From Candidatus Jettenia caeni (GTDB lineage Bacteria; Planctomycetota; Brocadiia; Brocadiales; Brocadiaceae): a stretch of 64,000 nt of DNA. Position 1 is the first letter of the stretch, and every line of letters starts with the position of its first letter. Below, one piece after another: positions 57,975 through 63,029 of the stretch. The DNA lies in contig BAFH01000003.1 in the NCBI GenBank assembly GCA_000296795.1, positions 930,401-994,400 on the forward strand. Reading direction: 5' to 3'. The position numbers and the translations under genes are program-made. The notes beneath the pieces are model-generated. The model had not been told where the DNA came from. It made no database searches and saw only the letters and a program-made list of their open reading frames with translations.

Positions 57975-58047
57975 GTAGGGGCGAAGCATTTTTGTGACAC
58001 AATTCTGAAATTATTCATCTTAGTAGAGAAAAATGCTTCGCCCCTAC
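57975..58047. repeat. REP palindrome R1 (73 bp)
   Basis: GTAGGGGCGAAGCATTTTT at the left and AAAAATGCTTCGCCCCTAC at the right form perfect arms. It follows the tail sequence at the end of the SLOG gene. Confidence 0.92.
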
Positions 58048-58076
58048 GTGTTGTCGTCATAATCCCATCCTATGCA

Positions 58077-58661
58077 TTATTTGATGTCATAGTTAAAGGA
58101 TGAAATAGTTTTTCCTGTGTGTGAAATGTCTGTAATGAGTTTTTCAATATTACCCCCTTGTGCAGCGTAGGCGACAAATATTTCATCCGCCAGTTCTGCC
58201 ATGAGGCGATTTCTTTGGTTGGCAGTTTCCACAGTAACCCGTTTCACATTCTCGTTAAATGGAGAAATGAGCAGGAGTCTGTTTTTGTTTAAGGCTTCCT
58301 CCAGTTCAGGTTCAAGTCTTTTCTTAAGGCCTCTTGCTAGTACAAGTATAATGGGCTGGTTACCTTTGAGCAGGTAGTGCAAAACGTCTTTTTCTATTTT
58401 AGAATGAAAGCCCGATATGACACAGACGCCTTTTTCCCTTTGTTCAACTGCCCAGTCATATGATTTAAGGATGATATTCGCCGGGCATTTGCGGGAACAT
58501 AAGAAGGCAATTTTGAAATGTTCGAGTATTTGTTTATTGCCTATATAGTGTAAATTGTTTTGAGGTAGGGGCGAAGCATTTTTTGTTATGGAATTCCGGC
58601 ATAATTCATTCGGTGGAAAAAATGCTTCGCCCCTACGGTTATGATCATGGTTTGTTGCCAT
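58077..58661 (-). CDS. SLOG/DprA-like Rossmann protein with a REP-derived N-terminus
   Basis: The 194-residue frame begins MATNHDHN, then RRGEAFFPPNELCRNSITKN plus ASPL, encoded entirely by REP palindrome R2 (58565-58636). From LHYIGNKQILEHFKIAFLCS onward it matches DprA/SLOG-like Rossmann proteins: SGFHSKIEKDVLHYLLKGNQ and PIILVLARGLKKRL. There is no usable start between the REP and this core. The C-terminal FNYDIK followed by stop, then sequence encoding CIGWDYDD, resembles the tail of its neighbours. Likely a defence or DNA-processing gene whose beginning was replaced. Confidence 0.6.
   Translation of the reverse strand: MATNHDHNRRGEAFFPPNELCRNSITKNASPLPQNNLHYIGNKQILEHFKIAFLCSRKCPANIILKSYDWAVEQREKGVCVISGFHSKIEKDVLHYLLKGNQPIILVLARGLKKRLEPELEEALNKNRLLLISPFNENVKRVTVETANQRNRLMAELADEIFVAYAAQGGNIEKLITDISHTGKTISSFNYDIK
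58565..58636. repeat. REP palindrome R2 (72 bp), in frame with the SLOG gene
   Basis: GTAGGGGCGAAGCATTTTTT and its inverse. Translated on the minus strand as part of the SLOG N-terminus. 72 bp is a multiple of three. Confidence 0.92.
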
Positions 58662-59400
58662 AATCCTGTCCCATGCGGTATTTAAAGTCGTAATTGATTA
58701 TAAAATCCAATTCCTCATTGGTAAAATTGCATCTCTTTTTTACTTCGTGTTTCAATTCTGCTTCAGATACCTGAGATCTATCAGGGTTATTCATATCATA
58801 TGCCCACATGAGTGGATTGTACATAATATACTGTCGAATGGTATTTAATGAATGTTCGTTTCGGATGATGTGTTCGTAATAGTTGCGTTGCCAGAGCGTG
58901 ACGCCAGGGGTATTGTTTGATTGGTTGATTTTTCGCGTGGAAACAGATTTGAAATTTTGCATAATTGACCCCAAAGAACCGGAGAATGTTCCATGTGGTG
59001 ATTGCATTGTTGGGTGTAGGGGCGAAGCATTTTCCGTGACAAGACCTGAGTACGATTTCATGGGTGAGGAAAATGCTTCGCCCCTACCATTGGCGTTATT
59101 TCCACAATTGCGTTCCGTAATAATTATAATCCCATGGATATGATTTGGCATAACAACGCATGTATCCAATCGGATGTGTGTAAAATATTTCGGTATGTTA
59201 TTCCAACACGTATAAATCATAGCGCCAAATTTATTCAATTGCATGATTTCACCAGAAATTTTCCCCAGGAGGCATTTTCTGTTTTCTGTGCACATGGTCA
59301 CAAAATACGCACCTGGCCTTGTATAATCGTATCCCTTCAGTCGTATTGAACGGCGATGGTGTTTTTCCGGGTCGTAATTTGCATTTCTGTTTTGTTGCAT
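58645..59400 (-). CDS. REP-associated tyrosine transposase (RAYT) with an in-frame REP inside
   Basis: The 251-residue protein has the RAYT signature: RSIRLKGYDYTRPGAYFVTM at the start, the HUH-like VVMPNHIHGIIIITE and NTIRQYIMYNPLMWAYD with the probable catalytic Tyr. Between the HUH motif and GSIMQNFKSVSTRKINQ lies GRGEAFSSPMKSYSGLVTEN plus ASPL, 24 codons encoded by REP R3 (59016-59087). The C-terminal FTNEELDFIINYDFKYRMGQ matches the end of a methylase fragment next door. RAYTs move REP/BIME elements of their own genome. The upstream REP R4 lies 68 bp before the start. Confidence 0.85.
   Translation of the reverse strand: MQQNRNANYDPEKHHRRSIRLKGYDYTRPGAYFVTMCTENRKCLLGKISGEIMQLNKFGAMIYTCWNNIPKYFTHIRLDTCVVMPNHIHGIIIITERNCGNNANGRGEAFSSPMKSYSGLVTENASPLHPTMQSPHGTFSGSLGSIMQNFKSVSTRKINQSNNTPGVTLWQRNYYEHIIRNEHSLNTIRQYIMYNPLMWAYDMNNPDRSQVSEAELKHEVKKRCNFTNEELDFIINYDFKYRMGQDYGNKP
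59016..59087. repeat. REP palindrome R3 (72 bp), in frame inside the RAYT gene
   Basis: GTAGGGGCGAAGCATTTTCC and the inverse AAAATGCTTCGCCCCTAC. It sits between two conserved parts of the transposase and adds exactly 24 codons without a stop. Confidence 0.95.
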
Positions 59401-59467: not shown

Positions 59468-59541
59468 GTAGGGGCGAAGCATTTTTTATGAACAAGATTC
59501 TGACATTATTCATTCGGTGTGAAAAAATGCTTCGCCCCTAC
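59468..59541. repeat. REP palindrome R4 (74 bp)
   Basis: Same arms as R1-R3. It lies between the methylase C-terminal fragment and the RAYT start. Confidence 0.92.
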
Positions 59542-59552
59542 GTTGTTACGTT

Positions 59553-59753
59553 TTATGGTTCATTATCGTCATAATCCCGTCCCATGCGGTATTTGATGTC
59601 GTAGGTGATGATGAAATCCAATTCCTCATCGGTGAAACCGTAATGCTGGGCTAACACCTTGTCGATTTCGTCTATGATGGGTTTGGATTTTTTTAAATAA
59701 AACTCATCGTATTCAACCTTTCCAGAAGTTTTATAGTTATAAATTCGTCTTAC
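59553..59753 (-). pseudogene. C-terminal fragment of an adenine-specific DNA methylase
   Basis: The stretch encodes SVRRIYNYKTSGKVEYDEFY then KPIIDEIDKVLAQHYGFTDE and ELDFIITYDIKYRMG. The last block is typical of Eco57I-type or N6 DNA methyltransferases. All upstream catalytic domains are missing; the sequence is cut by the left inverted repeat of the IS4-type element (59754). The frame continues to 59873 only through the IS end, which is not native coding. Confidence 0.7.
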
Positions 59754-61163
59754 TGATTTACACATAAGTTGCGCAGAAATAGGATAAATTTGTTCAAGAG
59801 TAGCCAAATACCAGGAAATTAAGGACCGTATGGCTGAAAAAGCCTGAAAAATAAGGGTTGAGAACAGTCCCAACGTATGGCATTCTTTATGAAAGAATAG
59901 TTCAAGTATTTTTCATAAGGAGAAGCCACCATGAAGAAACCATTCTCAATCCCTTTGCTTTCACAGATGCTGTTTCACCGTACCCCTAAATCCGTTCAGG
60001 AAAAACTTATTGCTGTTTATCTGTGGACACTAATGACTTATTGGGGTCATTTCAGTATCAGCTTAGTTGCCCAATATCTCAAACGACATAAAGCACAAGT
60101 ATCCAGACACATGAAGAACAATCTATTCTTAGATAATCTCTCTCAGAAAATGCTTCCCAAAGAACTCTCCGGAAGAATTGGGAAAAAGGCACATCTGATT
60201 ATCGATTCTACAATGAAGGCCAAAAGAGGGAAAAAGCTCTGCAATCTTCAGAAGTTCAAGACTTCCCGTGGATTCATTATTGGCCACTGTTTTGTCTTTG
60301 CCCTGCTTATCTGTGAAGACAATTCATCATGGATTATAGCCGTAAAACCCTATCTTACCAAAGCATTTTGTAGAAGAACCAACCAAGAGTTTAAGACCCA
60401 AAACCAATTAGCCGTAGAGATCTTACAGGAGGTCTCTCTTCCGTTAGAAACCCATGTCATCGTGGTTGCCGACTCTGCCTTTGTAGCGCACTTTATCGTA
60501 TCAGAAATTACCACTCATCCCCAATGGTCATTTGTCAGTTCTTTAGACTCCAATCGAAAGATTACCATCAAGGGATACACCCGGCATACTGCTGATTTTA
60601 AGAAAGAATACTTACCAGCCCTTAAAAAAATATCCATTTCTTGTAATGGACGAAAAAATACTTTAAAAGTTATGTCAATCAGCGCTGAAGTATCAAAGGT
60701 TGGCCCTGCCACCGTAGTGCTCTCTCAGCGTGATCGTCAAACCCTTGCCCTTATAGGTGTTGGTAAAAGACTTTCTCTCAGAGCAATCTGTTATGCCTAT
60801 CTCTTGCGATGGAGAATAGAGATTCTCTTTAAGGAACTCAAACAGTATCTGCATTTTGGCTCGTATCATTGCAGAGATTTTGAAGCTTATATGAACCATA
60901 TTCTTTTGGTGATTCTGGCATATAACATTCTGAAGTCTCTGTATCCAAAATTTTCAATTGCTGAAGCGAAAAAACAGGTAAGTCAGTCTTCCCAAGCAGT
61001 ATTTTTGTACGAACTGAAGCATGACTTAACAAAATTTCACGGCAATAGAATCGTTAAGAACAAGATTTTTCAGGCTCTCTCAGCCATGACTGCCATCTTT
61101 CCCTTATCTATGGCTGGTTAGCACGATTTTTGTCTAGTTTATGCGCAACTTATGTGTAAATCA
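59754..61163 (+). mobile_element. IS4-type insertion sequence, about 1.41 kb
   Basis: Perfect 22-bp inverted repeats TGATTTACACATAAGTTGCG plus CA (59754-59775) and the inverse (61142-61163) bound one intact transposase gene. No direct target duplication is visible (left flank ...CGTCTTAC, right flank ACGTCGTCC...), consistent with a deletion adjacent to the element. Confidence 0.88.
59931..61121 (+). CDS. IS4-family transposase, intact
   Basis: The 396-residue transposase has a DDE fold with catalytic Asp in HLIIDSTMKAKRG, second Asp in VVADSAFVA, and the YREK block YLLRWRIEILFKELKQYL (Y-2-R-3-E-6-K), which holds the last Glu. A basic N-terminus with HTH-like QYLKRHKAQVSRHM binds the ends. 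AAGGAG precedes the ATG. It has no frameshift, so the element may still be active. Confidence 0.92.
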   Translation: MKKPFSIPLLSQMLFHRTPKSVQEKLIAVYLWTLMTYWGHFSISLVAQYLKRHKAQVSRHMKNNLFLDNLSQKMLPKELSGRIGKKAHLIIDSTMKAKRGKKLCNLQKFKTSRGFIIGHCFVFALLICEDNSSWIIAVKPYLTKAFCRRTNQEFKTQNQLAVEILQEVSLPLETHVIVVADSAFVAHFIVSEITTHPQWSFVSSLDSNRKITIKGYTRHTADFKKEYLPALKKISISCNGRKNTLKVMSISAEVSKVGPATVVLSQRDRQTLALIGVGKRLSLRAICYAYLLRWRIEILFKELKQYLHFGSYHCRDFEAYMNHILLVILAYNILKSLYPKFSIAEAKKQVSQSSQAVFLYELKHDLTKFHGNRIVKNKIFQALSAMTAIFPLSMAG

Positions 61164-63029
61164 ACGTCGTCCAGAAATTCATCAAGCATATTTGCTTCTT
61201 GAGTGCCTATCGGGAGCGGTAGGTTATTTTCTAACGCATAAACATAAATATAATTACGCAAAATATGGCGGCTTAATGATATCAGAAAAGAATAACCACT
61301 GCTTTCTAGCCTTTTGAAGAGATTTGTCCTGCAAAAGCCCATGAGCCGTCTGCCTGCATGAGATAGATTATCCTGTATAACTGTTTCTTCTTTCGCTGGT
61401 TTAAGAGTGGTCTTTTTATCAAGATAATTGCCCAGGCCATATCTGGGAAGATTTAAACTGTTAATGGCATCTACGACGGTATCTGAATATAATTTCGCAT
61501 ATTGGTCTTTAGGATCGTTGGGATTAAAATCGTATTCAACCTTTTTCGGTATCCTATCGGGGAAATACGAGCGACTACCATCTGAAAACTGGAGATATTT
61601 TCTGCCATTGACGGGGTCTGTTTCTGCATAATTTTGTTTAATAAAACTTCTTGGCCGTCTTACCATGTATAACCGCATCAGTTCACGCCAATCATCTGCA
61701 TAAGAGCTTTTTTCGAATGCGGGTAATGTTGTTGCAGAATACTGATATTTAGCCATAAATTGAACCCTGCCGCCGATACTTTTAATAAATCTCTCCGGGC
61801 TTATACCTAAATCTTTATCCTCGGGAATAAAAAGGCGAAGTTGATTGGATAAATCAAGGTACGTTTTATTATATGGTGTAGCCGAAAGCATAATAACTTT
61901 GCTCTCGTTAATCTGGATGTATTCCTGAATAGCCCTGTATCGTTTACCTTCCCTGTTTCTTAAATTATGGCTTTCGTCAATGATGATTAACCGGTATCTT
62001 CTTAGTTTTGGTAGAACTGACTGGACTTGCGTGATAGGCAAAACCTTTGCCCGTAACTGGTATGTATGTGCATAATCCTTCCACATATGTGTCAGATTTT
62101 TCGGGCAGATGATGAGCGTTTCAAGGAAAAAGTCTTCCTCAAAAATCTTTGCTAAAGCTGTTGCTGTAAGGGTTTTCCCAAATCCAACAACATCACCAAT
62201 CAAAACACCGTCTCTCTTATTCAAGTAATGTGCAGCTATTGAAACTGCCTTTTGCTGAAAGCTATGTAATTTCTCCTGCAAAATCTTTGGAATTTTAAAT
62301 TCTGTTAAACCAGCACGGGCTTCGCGGGATAAATGATAAGCAATTTTGAGATAGATTATGATAAGGTGAGACCAATCTGTCAGCAGCCCAGCTATTATCA
62401 ATTATTTCTGTTAATTCTTTGGATATATCTATGCACCATCTATCATTCCACCTGTCTTCAAACCATTTTGTTAGCTTTAATGCTGCATCCTGTTCCAAAA
62501 CGTCAATGTTTAATTCACCCTGATGAAGCAGACCGGCAAGGGTTAAATTACTACTGCCAAGGTAACCAATAATGGGGCTTATCTTATCGTCTCTAAATAA
62601 CAGATATAATTTGGCATGTAATGGGTGTCTCAAAAAAAGTTTAACAATAACCTTTTTGTCTTTTATCTGTTGAGATAACTTTCTTAAACCAATCTCGTCT
62701 TCCTCGGTCGGGATGCCAATGGTTAATTGATCCTTAAACTCTTGTGCTAATTGCTTTCTTACGGCTGATGCTGTTTGATTGTCGATAATACCCTGTTCGG
62801 TTTTATAGAAATATTCCCGTATAATCTCAAGAGGAGGTTTTTGCATACCTATGAGCAGCCTGCAGCAATTACCTTCATTGTCTTTTAGATTATCTATCCC
62901 GGCAGCAACCTCTTTCCATCCTCTTAAGTTGAAATAACCAACGCAAAAGTCTGCCCTGTGGGATACCTCCAGGGTATTTTGTAATCCCTGAACTAAATGA
63001 TTTTCAATGTTATCAAATATTTTTGGCAT
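61160..63029 (-). pseudogene. PLD-nuclease/SNF2-type helicase gene, frameshifted and cut by the IS
   Basis: The N-terminal 223 codons encode a phospholipase D-like domain (VKLFLRHPLHAKLYLLFRD, HxK motif; YLGSSNLTLAGLL), then WAADRLVSPYH. A single extra base near 62357 shifts the frame to IYLKIAYHLSREARAGLTEF, followed by the SNF2 ATPase: GDVVGFGKTLTATALAKIF (Walker A), IIIDESHNLRN (DESH) and LSATPYN. The helicase C-terminal half is lost: the frame runs into the IS end at 61163 and stops at 61139-61141. The family (PLD-DEAD helicases linked with DNA methylases) belongs to defence or restriction neighbourhoods. It is disabled here. Confidence 0.82.

What the first reader, a model, noticed from the sequence alone, without database searches (positions are those of the whole stretch)
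59016..59087. A REP palindrome sits in frame inside its own RAYT transposase gene
The 72-bp REP (arms GTAGGGGCGAAGCATTTT and inverse) interrupts the RAYT between the HUH motif and the GSIMQNFKS segment and adds 24 codons with no stop. Two REPs in non-coding positions are 73 and 74 bp; the two read as protein are 72 bp. Mobile palindromes that insert in frame within genes are known from Rickettsia (RPE), but a RAYT carrying its own REP as protein sequence is, to my knowledge, not described. It could tune the enzyme or reflect selection for tolerated insertion.
Basis: partly seen in the sequence, partly recalled or inferred. Interest (0 to 1): 0.75.

Follow-up and report, generated by a model that had tools for sequence, protein, structure and literature searches.

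The report
Transposase gene carrying its own REP
A bacterial REP-associated transposase gene is read straight through a copy of the short palindrome it is thought to act on; this is real, but it is a described habit of this transposase subclass, here shown to be old, kept in frame, co-evolving with the flanking palindromes and once flipped in place.

Summary
In detail: window 59016-59087 is a 72-bp REP doublet (18-bp perfect arms), identical in its arms to three flanking copies, read in frame as residues 105-129 of the RAYT at 58645-59400(-). The novelty claim is wrong. Quentin et al. [quoted passage not shown] this gene fits that subclass. In 110 related genes from many phyla, 96 carry a GTAGGGGC-type core in the same loop, against 5.5% in the rest of the genes. 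The loop is predicted disordered, catalytic and GTAG-guide residues are intact, and dN/dS is 0.19-0.28, so the gene is probably translated through and working. Details I did not find described: seven RAYTs in one clade carry an internal element of exactly 72 bp with compensatory stem changes; in two of them flanking REPs share the internal copy's arm variant; arms show 0/30 differences where the rest of the gene differs by 16-29%; and the spacer is inverted in place between close relatives. Why the internal copy is kept is open.

The parts
58645..59400 (-). RAYT / TnpAREP gene, 251 aa, Y1 HUH transposase, subclass 2.4-like
   Evidence: fold matches IS200/IS605-type transposases and E. coli RAYT 4er8; dN/dS 0.19-0.28
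59016..59087 (-). internal REP doublet, 72 bp, translated as residues 105-129 (RGEAF SSPMKSYSGLVTE NASPL)
59016..59033 (+). arm of the internal REP, GTAGGGGCGAAGCATTTT; perfect pairing continues two bases inwards (20 bp in all)
59070..59087 (-). opposite arm of the internal REP, exact inverse
59034..59069 (.). 36-nt spacer of the internal REP; inverted in window and L035 relative to L036 and L037
59134..59145 (-). HuH motif NHIH, residues 86-89
   Evidence: invariant columns N86, H87, H89
58861..58893 (-). WQ....EH..R segment, residues 170-180, same spacing as the GTAG-guide contacts of E. coli TnpAREP (W94, Q95, E100, H101, R104)
   Evidence: residues of E. coli from PMC6006769, comparison by spacing
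58828..58830 (-). catalytic Tyr191 in YIMYNP
   Evidence: invariant column Y191
58648..58761 (-). C-terminal tail (about residues 214-251), also found at the end of neighbouring ORF 59553-59873
57975..58047 (.). flanking REP doublet 1, 73 bp, non-coding
58565..58636 (.). flanking REP doublet 2, 72 bp, downstream of the RAYT, in the N-terminal part of the DprA-like ORF
59468..59541 (.). flanking REP doublet 4, 74 bp, upstream of the RAYT, non-coding
58077..58661 (-). DprA-like ORF that starts inside the RAYT 3' end and reads through doublet 2

Best explanation
This is a REPtron: a tyrosine (Y1, HUH) REP-associated transposase of subclass 2.4 with its cognate REP doublets on both sides and one more doublet inside the gene, in the loop between the HuH strand and the following helix. 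Shown by computation: the gene is under purifying selection with the internal copy in frame; the copy codes for a predicted disordered loop; it is inherited with the gene; its arms stay paired, and in some relatives carry the same arm variant as the flanking REPs. Inferred: the mRNA is translated straight through; the loop tolerates any peptide the palindrome encodes; and the internal copy persists because the enzyme and ordinary hairpin or recombination processes act on it as DNA (copying or conversion with the adjacent REPs, spacer inversion, occasional replacement), with selection keeping only in-frame versions. The evidence does not point to a function of the encoded peptide.
For: Site specificity: exact GTAGGGGC/GCCCCTAC occurs 145 times in 11.3 kb of loop DNA against 4 times in 50.6 kb of the rest of 110 homologous genes; 96/110 loops have it within 1 mismatch, control 5.5%. 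DNA-level structure: loop folding z-score median -4.0 against codon shuffles, control -0.2; perfect inverted arms of 9 nt or more in 85% of loops, against 3.5% in shuffles and 6.4% in the rest of the gene. Not a peptide motif: the GTAG arm is used in both stop-free phases (52 and 27 exact cases) and never in the TAG-stop phase. Cognate: 33/110 loops share 14-mers with their own flanks, against 3 and 7 for the N and C parts; in multi-RAYT genomes 22/41 loops share 13-mers with their own flanks, against 10/106 pairings with other RAYT loci of the same genome. Inheritance and maintenance: seven RAYTs in one clade (SH-aLRT 96) all have exactly 72 bp, with changes on both sides at stem pairs 9, 16, 17, 18 and 20; in L070 and L106 the flanking REPs carry the same arm variant as the internal copy. 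Arms differ 0/30 while the rest of the gene differs 16-29%. Protein: dN/dS 0.19-0.28; residues 100-135 pLDDT below 50, core mostly above 90; fold matches 4er8 and IS608.
Against: No expression, proteomic or transposition data. G024, in the same clade, has flanking REPs of the window's family but a different, single-copy REP in its loop, so cognate matching is not absolute. Many loops (77/110) show no 14-mer match to the flanks held here, partly because flanks are short or REPs diverged. Some cyanobacterial relatives (L103, L105, L127) have flanking REPs but an empty loop, so the internal copy is dispensable. Frame groups cluster strongly on the tree, so independent events are far fewer than 96. 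The step 'conversion with flanking REPs' is inferred from pattern only.
Confidence: 0.65

Rival explanations
1. The internal REP is kept by selection as a working nucleic-acid element: a hairpin in the gene's DNA or mRNA that the RAYT binds, giving autoregulation or marking its own gene as substrate, so that enzyme and cognate REP travel together in horizontal transfer.
For: Presence in most loops across phyla; identical arms where the rest of the gene has diverged; paired changes in the stem and the same arm variant in flanking REPs of two relatives; after replacement (G024) the new occupant is again a GTAG double-foot hairpin.
Against: Empty loops exist in RAYTs that still have flanking REPs; homogenisation with flanking copies would give the same conservation without selection; no functional data.
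Confidence: 0.25
2. Neutral tolerance only: REPs insert all over the genome, and in these genes only hits in one tolerant loop survive.
For: Loop predicted disordered; REPs in other genes are known (PMC3733652); occupants vary and turn over (G024 replacement); empties exist.
Against: Occupants match the gene's own flanking REPs more often than those of other RAYT loci in the same genome; none of the other dispersed copies examined in own genome and G024 lies in a convincing gene, apart from the DprA-like N terminus, so random hitting does not readily explain near-universal occupancy of one loop.
Confidence: 0.2
3. The encoded peptide (RGEAF...NASPL and equivalents) has a protein function such as DNA contact or tuning of the enzyme.
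For: RGEAF/NASPL ends are conserved in the four closest genes.
Against: Different reading phases and unrelated peptides fill the same loop in homologues; inverting the spacer gives an unrelated 13-residue sequence yet the gene stays under purifying selection; loop predicted disordered.
Confidence: 0.05
4. The gene is a pseudogene or the frame is chance.
For: Most other RAYT-like matches in the own genome are fragments.
Against: dN/dS 0.19-0.28 across four species, all catalytic residues invariant, internal element exactly 72 bp in seven relatives.
Confidence: 0.02

Closest known systems
TnpAREP/RAYT subclass 2.4 of Quentin et al. 2018 (Bertels group 4), PMC6006769
   Same: HUH NHIH and WQ motifs, YIxxNP-type Y motif, variable insertion between the HuH strand and the next helix, GTAG-footed and double-foot REPs flanking the gene, REP inserted in frame inside the gene
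   Different: This member has an extra C-terminal helical tail of about 36 aa shared with a neighbouring ORF; YIMYNP rather than YIxNNP; the internal element is a 72-bp doublet with a 36-nt spacer that has inverted within the clade
Intragenic GTAG/CGTC REPs of Di Nocera et al. 2013 (PMC3733652)
   Same: REP singles or dimers read as 20-30 amino acids inside ORFs
   Different: Those reported in the text lie mainly in replication, repair and other genes; here the host gene is the REP's own putative transposase
Rickettsia RPE palindromes in ORFs
   Same: Palindromic repeat translated in frame within a functional gene (as summarised in PMC3733652)
   Different: RPEs occur in many genes and have no known dedicated transposase; here a cognate enzyme hosts the element
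REPINs (Bertels and Rainey 2011, PMC3116915; recalled, only the abstract seen here)
   Same: Two REPs in inverse orientation forming one hairpin unit associated with a RAYT
   Different: Here only 10 intact doublets of this type in a 4.1-Mb genome, and one lies in the RAYT itself

Membership tests
TnpAREP subclass 2.4 | HuH motif NH[IFV]H and W followed by Q | tested here: met
   NHIH at residues 86-89; W170 invariant, Q171 nearly invariant
TnpAREP subclass 2.4 | Y motif YIxNNP | tested here: inconclusive
   Window has YIMYNP: class 2 Y---NP signature met, fourth position differs; homologues here give YIxxNP
TnpAREP subclass 2.4 | Variable-length insertion between beta3 and alphaC | tested here: met
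   Disordered segment 100-135 between strand 87-94 and helix 143-162; insertion length varies from 9 to 294 nt among homologues
TnpAREP subclass 2.4 | Flanking long or double-foot GTAG REPs | tested here: met
   Three flanking doublets with GTAG...CTAC ends
TnpAREP subclass 2.4 | REP inserted in frame inside the gene between HuH and Y motifs | tested here: met
   59016-59087
TnpAREP subclass 2.4 | 8-aa insertion at the end of alphaB | not tested
   Needs the authors' structural alignment
TnpAREP subclass 2.4 | No C-terminal extension after the core (reported as usual, not stated as a criterion) | tested here: not met
   Two extra helices 213-224 and 228-243, homologous to the end of a neighbouring ORF; a secondary, apparently acquired difference
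TnpAREP subclass 2.4 | Position in the authors' family tree or HMM | not testable with these tools
   Their profiles are not held; supplementary files could not be opened
RAYT (functional) | Cleaves or mobilises cognate REP single strands | not testable with these tools
   Catalytic residues intact only
Rickettsia-type RPE | CGTC-tagged palindrome in many ORFs without a dedicated transposase | tested here: not met
   Element is GTAG-tagged and RAYT-associated

The most novel reading that the evidence does not exclude
The internal REP is a selected cis element that physically links each RAYT gene to its cognate palindrome (autoregulatory hairpin or self-substrate), and its invertible spacer switches the enzyme's loop between two stop-free peptides.
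Probability: 0.15. Interest if true: 0.65.

Novelty: new member of a known kind. Interest (0 to 1): 0.35.

Why it matters
Subclass 2.4 genes hold enzyme and putative substrate in one reading frame, which gives a natural record of RAYT-REP co-evolution: the internal copy can be dated with the gene and compared with the flanking copies. The paired stem changes, the shared arm variants in flanking REPs, the in-place inversion and the replacement in a sister species make the question of whether RAYTs rewrite nearby REPs directly testable. For annotation, it warns that the loop peptides of these transposases are translated DNA repeats, not protein motifs.

Tried and rejected
Length modulo 3 as a mark of coding copies: rejected, since 72 bp is the usual dispersed length in G024 and G030. 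A block private to this genome: rejected. Peptide-motif explanation: rejected on reading phase and sequence variety. Chance: rejected by three controls. A first 12-mer flank test was noisy (31 of 110 N parts matched) and was repeated with 14-mers. In the 13-mer body counts an artefact of N padding inflated the 'body' column; the correction still leaves many bodies with a single short match, so only the loop comparison is used. A short scan for GTAGGGGCGA hairpins in the own genome gave one unrelated double-foot REP. A PDB sequence search found nothing, but the fold search did. Presence/absence counts on the tree (10 changes) overstate losses, because some loops scored 'none' hold GTAGAGAC-type REPs.

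Full report
Observation. The sequence at 59016-59087 is as described: GTAGGGGCGAAGCATTTT, a 36-nt spacer, and the exact inverse arm, 72 bp in all, inside ORF 58645-59400 on the minus strand. The arm occurs eight times in the window without mismatch, as four inverted pairs, against a shuffle expectation of 0.09. The ORF is a Y1 (HUH) REP-associated transposase: NCBIfam REP_Tyr_transpos E 5e-18 (below its curated cut-off), Pfam Y1_Tnp above cut-off, and a predicted fold matching IS200/IS605-type transposases and the E. coli RAYT-REP complex 4er8.

Known or not. Intragenic REPs were catalogued in 2013 (PMC3733652). Quentin et al. [quoted passage not shown] The window gene matches that description. 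A search for later papers on the subclass returned only that paper and one on REP recognition.

Generality. 110 homologous genes with a well-defined loop were extracted from genomes of the same phylum and from a many-phyla collection. 96 loops contain GTAGGGGC or its inverse within one mismatch, 85 in both orientations; same-length stretches of the same genes give 5.5% and 0%. Exact cores are 145 in 11.3 kb of loops and 4 in 50.6 kb of the rest. Loop DNA folds far better than codon-shuffled versions (median z -4.0; control -0.2), and 85% have perfect inverted arms of at least 9 nt (controls 3.5% and 6.4%). The GTAG arm is read in both stop-free phases and never in the TAG phase, so the repeat is kept as DNA, not as a peptide. 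The counts are not independent: reading phase follows the protein tree.

Cognate relation. 33 of 110 loops share a 14-mer with their own flanks, against 3 for the N part and 7 for the C part of the gene. In genomes with several RAYTs, 22 of 41 loops share a 13-mer with their own flanks, against 10 of 106 pairings with other RAYT loci of the same genome. One exception in the window's own clade: in G024 the flanking REPs are of the GCATTTT family, but the loop holds GTAGGGGCGGGTTTAACCCCCGCCCCTAC, a single copy in that genome. This reads as a replacement.

Age and maintenance. A supported clade (SH-aLRT 96) joins the window gene with three from the same family (82, 75 and 62% identity) and with genes from two Chloroflexota MAGs (L070, L106) and the cyanobacterium Elainella (L066). 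All seven carry an internal element of exactly 72 bp in the same phase, and the stem changes on both sides at pairs 9, 16, 17, 18 and 20. In L070 the two flanking REPs carry the same arm variant (GGGGCAAAGC) as the internal copy, and in L106 the flanking copy shares GCTTCCC with the internal one. In the four close genes the arms differ at 0 of 30 sites while the rest of the gene differs at 16-29%. The gene outside the element has dN/dS 0.19-0.28. So a constrained protein gene has carried this hairpin for a long time, with its arms held in pairing (L106, the most divergent, has three mismatched pairs).

Inversion. The internal spacer of the window and L035 aligns with that of L036 only after reversal (29/36 inverted, 20-21/36 direct); the more distant L037 pairs directly with L036 (26/36) and with the window and L035 in reverse (26 and 25), while the window and L035 agree directly (32/36). 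The internal copies of window, L035 and L036 share CC...GG inner ends that the flanking copies lack. With L037 as outgroup, the simplest reading is one in-place inversion between the perfect arms on the branch to the window and L035. It changed 13 residues and kept the frame, because 72 is a multiple of 3 and both orientations are stop-free (one search shows the opposite strand open too).

Protein consequence. AlphaFold gives pLDDT below 50 for residues 100-135, which include the REP-coded 105-129, between the HuH strand and helix 143-162; most of the core is above 90. The residues corresponding by spacing to the E. coli GTAG-guide contacts (W, Q, E, H, R) are present.

Length rule. In the window the two non-coding copies are 73 and 74 bp and the two in ORFs 72 bp, as reported. 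But in G024 15 of 19 copies are 72 bp, and about 37 of 49 in G030 by my count of the coordinates; 17 dispersed G024 copies were examined and none lies in a convincing gene. The contrast is not a sign of selection on coding copies in general. The constancy of 72 bp in seven internal copies is compatible with frame selection, but those copies share ancestry.

Mechanism. Most likely the internal copy is a tolerated but cis-maintained passenger: the enzyme and hairpin-prone replication or recombination act on it as on the neighbouring REPs, and only in-frame versions survive. A working nucleic-acid role (autoregulation, cognate linkage) is not excluded. Empty loops beside intact flanking REPs in cyanobacteria (L103, L105, L127) show that it is not required.

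Noticed in passing
58648-58761 (-), 59553-59873 (-), 58050-58120 (-): The RAYT's C-terminal tail (FTNEELDFIINYDFKYRMG...) recurs at the end of the upstream ORF (FTDEELDFIITYDIKYRMGRDYDDNEP) and as a remnant beside doublet 1; each tail is followed by a REP doublet, so the repeated unit is tail plus REP, and the RAYT seems to have acquired a neighbour's C terminus.
   Followed up: partly
58565-58636 and 58077-58661 (-): A DprA-like ORF starts inside the RAYT 3' end and reads through a REP at its N terminus; the same arrangement is kept in a relative (L165 3280-3351), so it may be a second translated REP.
   Followed up: partly
L166 (G024:C1:129945-135589): RAYT of the window's clade with a different, single-copy double-foot REP in its loop while its flanks keep the GCATTTT family: a natural replacement.
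   Followed up: partly
L196 8537-8608 (G017:C16:56536-56607): An intergenic copy of the internal-type element (CC...GG inner ends), 84% identical to window 59001-59087 including about 15 nt next to it, hinting that the internal copy can be copied out of the gene.
   Followed up: partly
L155-L161 (G030): One genome holds seven RAYT loci, most with a distinct REP in the loop (RGEAF, VGATGPVAPT, VETHGRASL, VGAIHELPL, DTVHRVPT, VGATRRVAPT types).
   Followed up: partly
loops of L098, L110, L129, L132, L133, L143: Some loops hold tandemly repeated segments, several of them REP-derived, up to 294 nt, suggesting local slippage or repeated insertion.
   Followed up: no
59931-61121 (+) and 61139-62401 (-): IS701-like transposase next to an SNF2-like helicase with weak DpdE/DISARM DrmD matches: possibly a defence gene disrupted near the REPtron.
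   Followed up: no
G000:C3:300279, C3:847900, C4:18906, C4:91209: Four 74-bp TTTGC-type doublets in the own genome are identical including the spacer (two in each orientation), possibly recent copies or parts of larger repeats.
   Followed up: no
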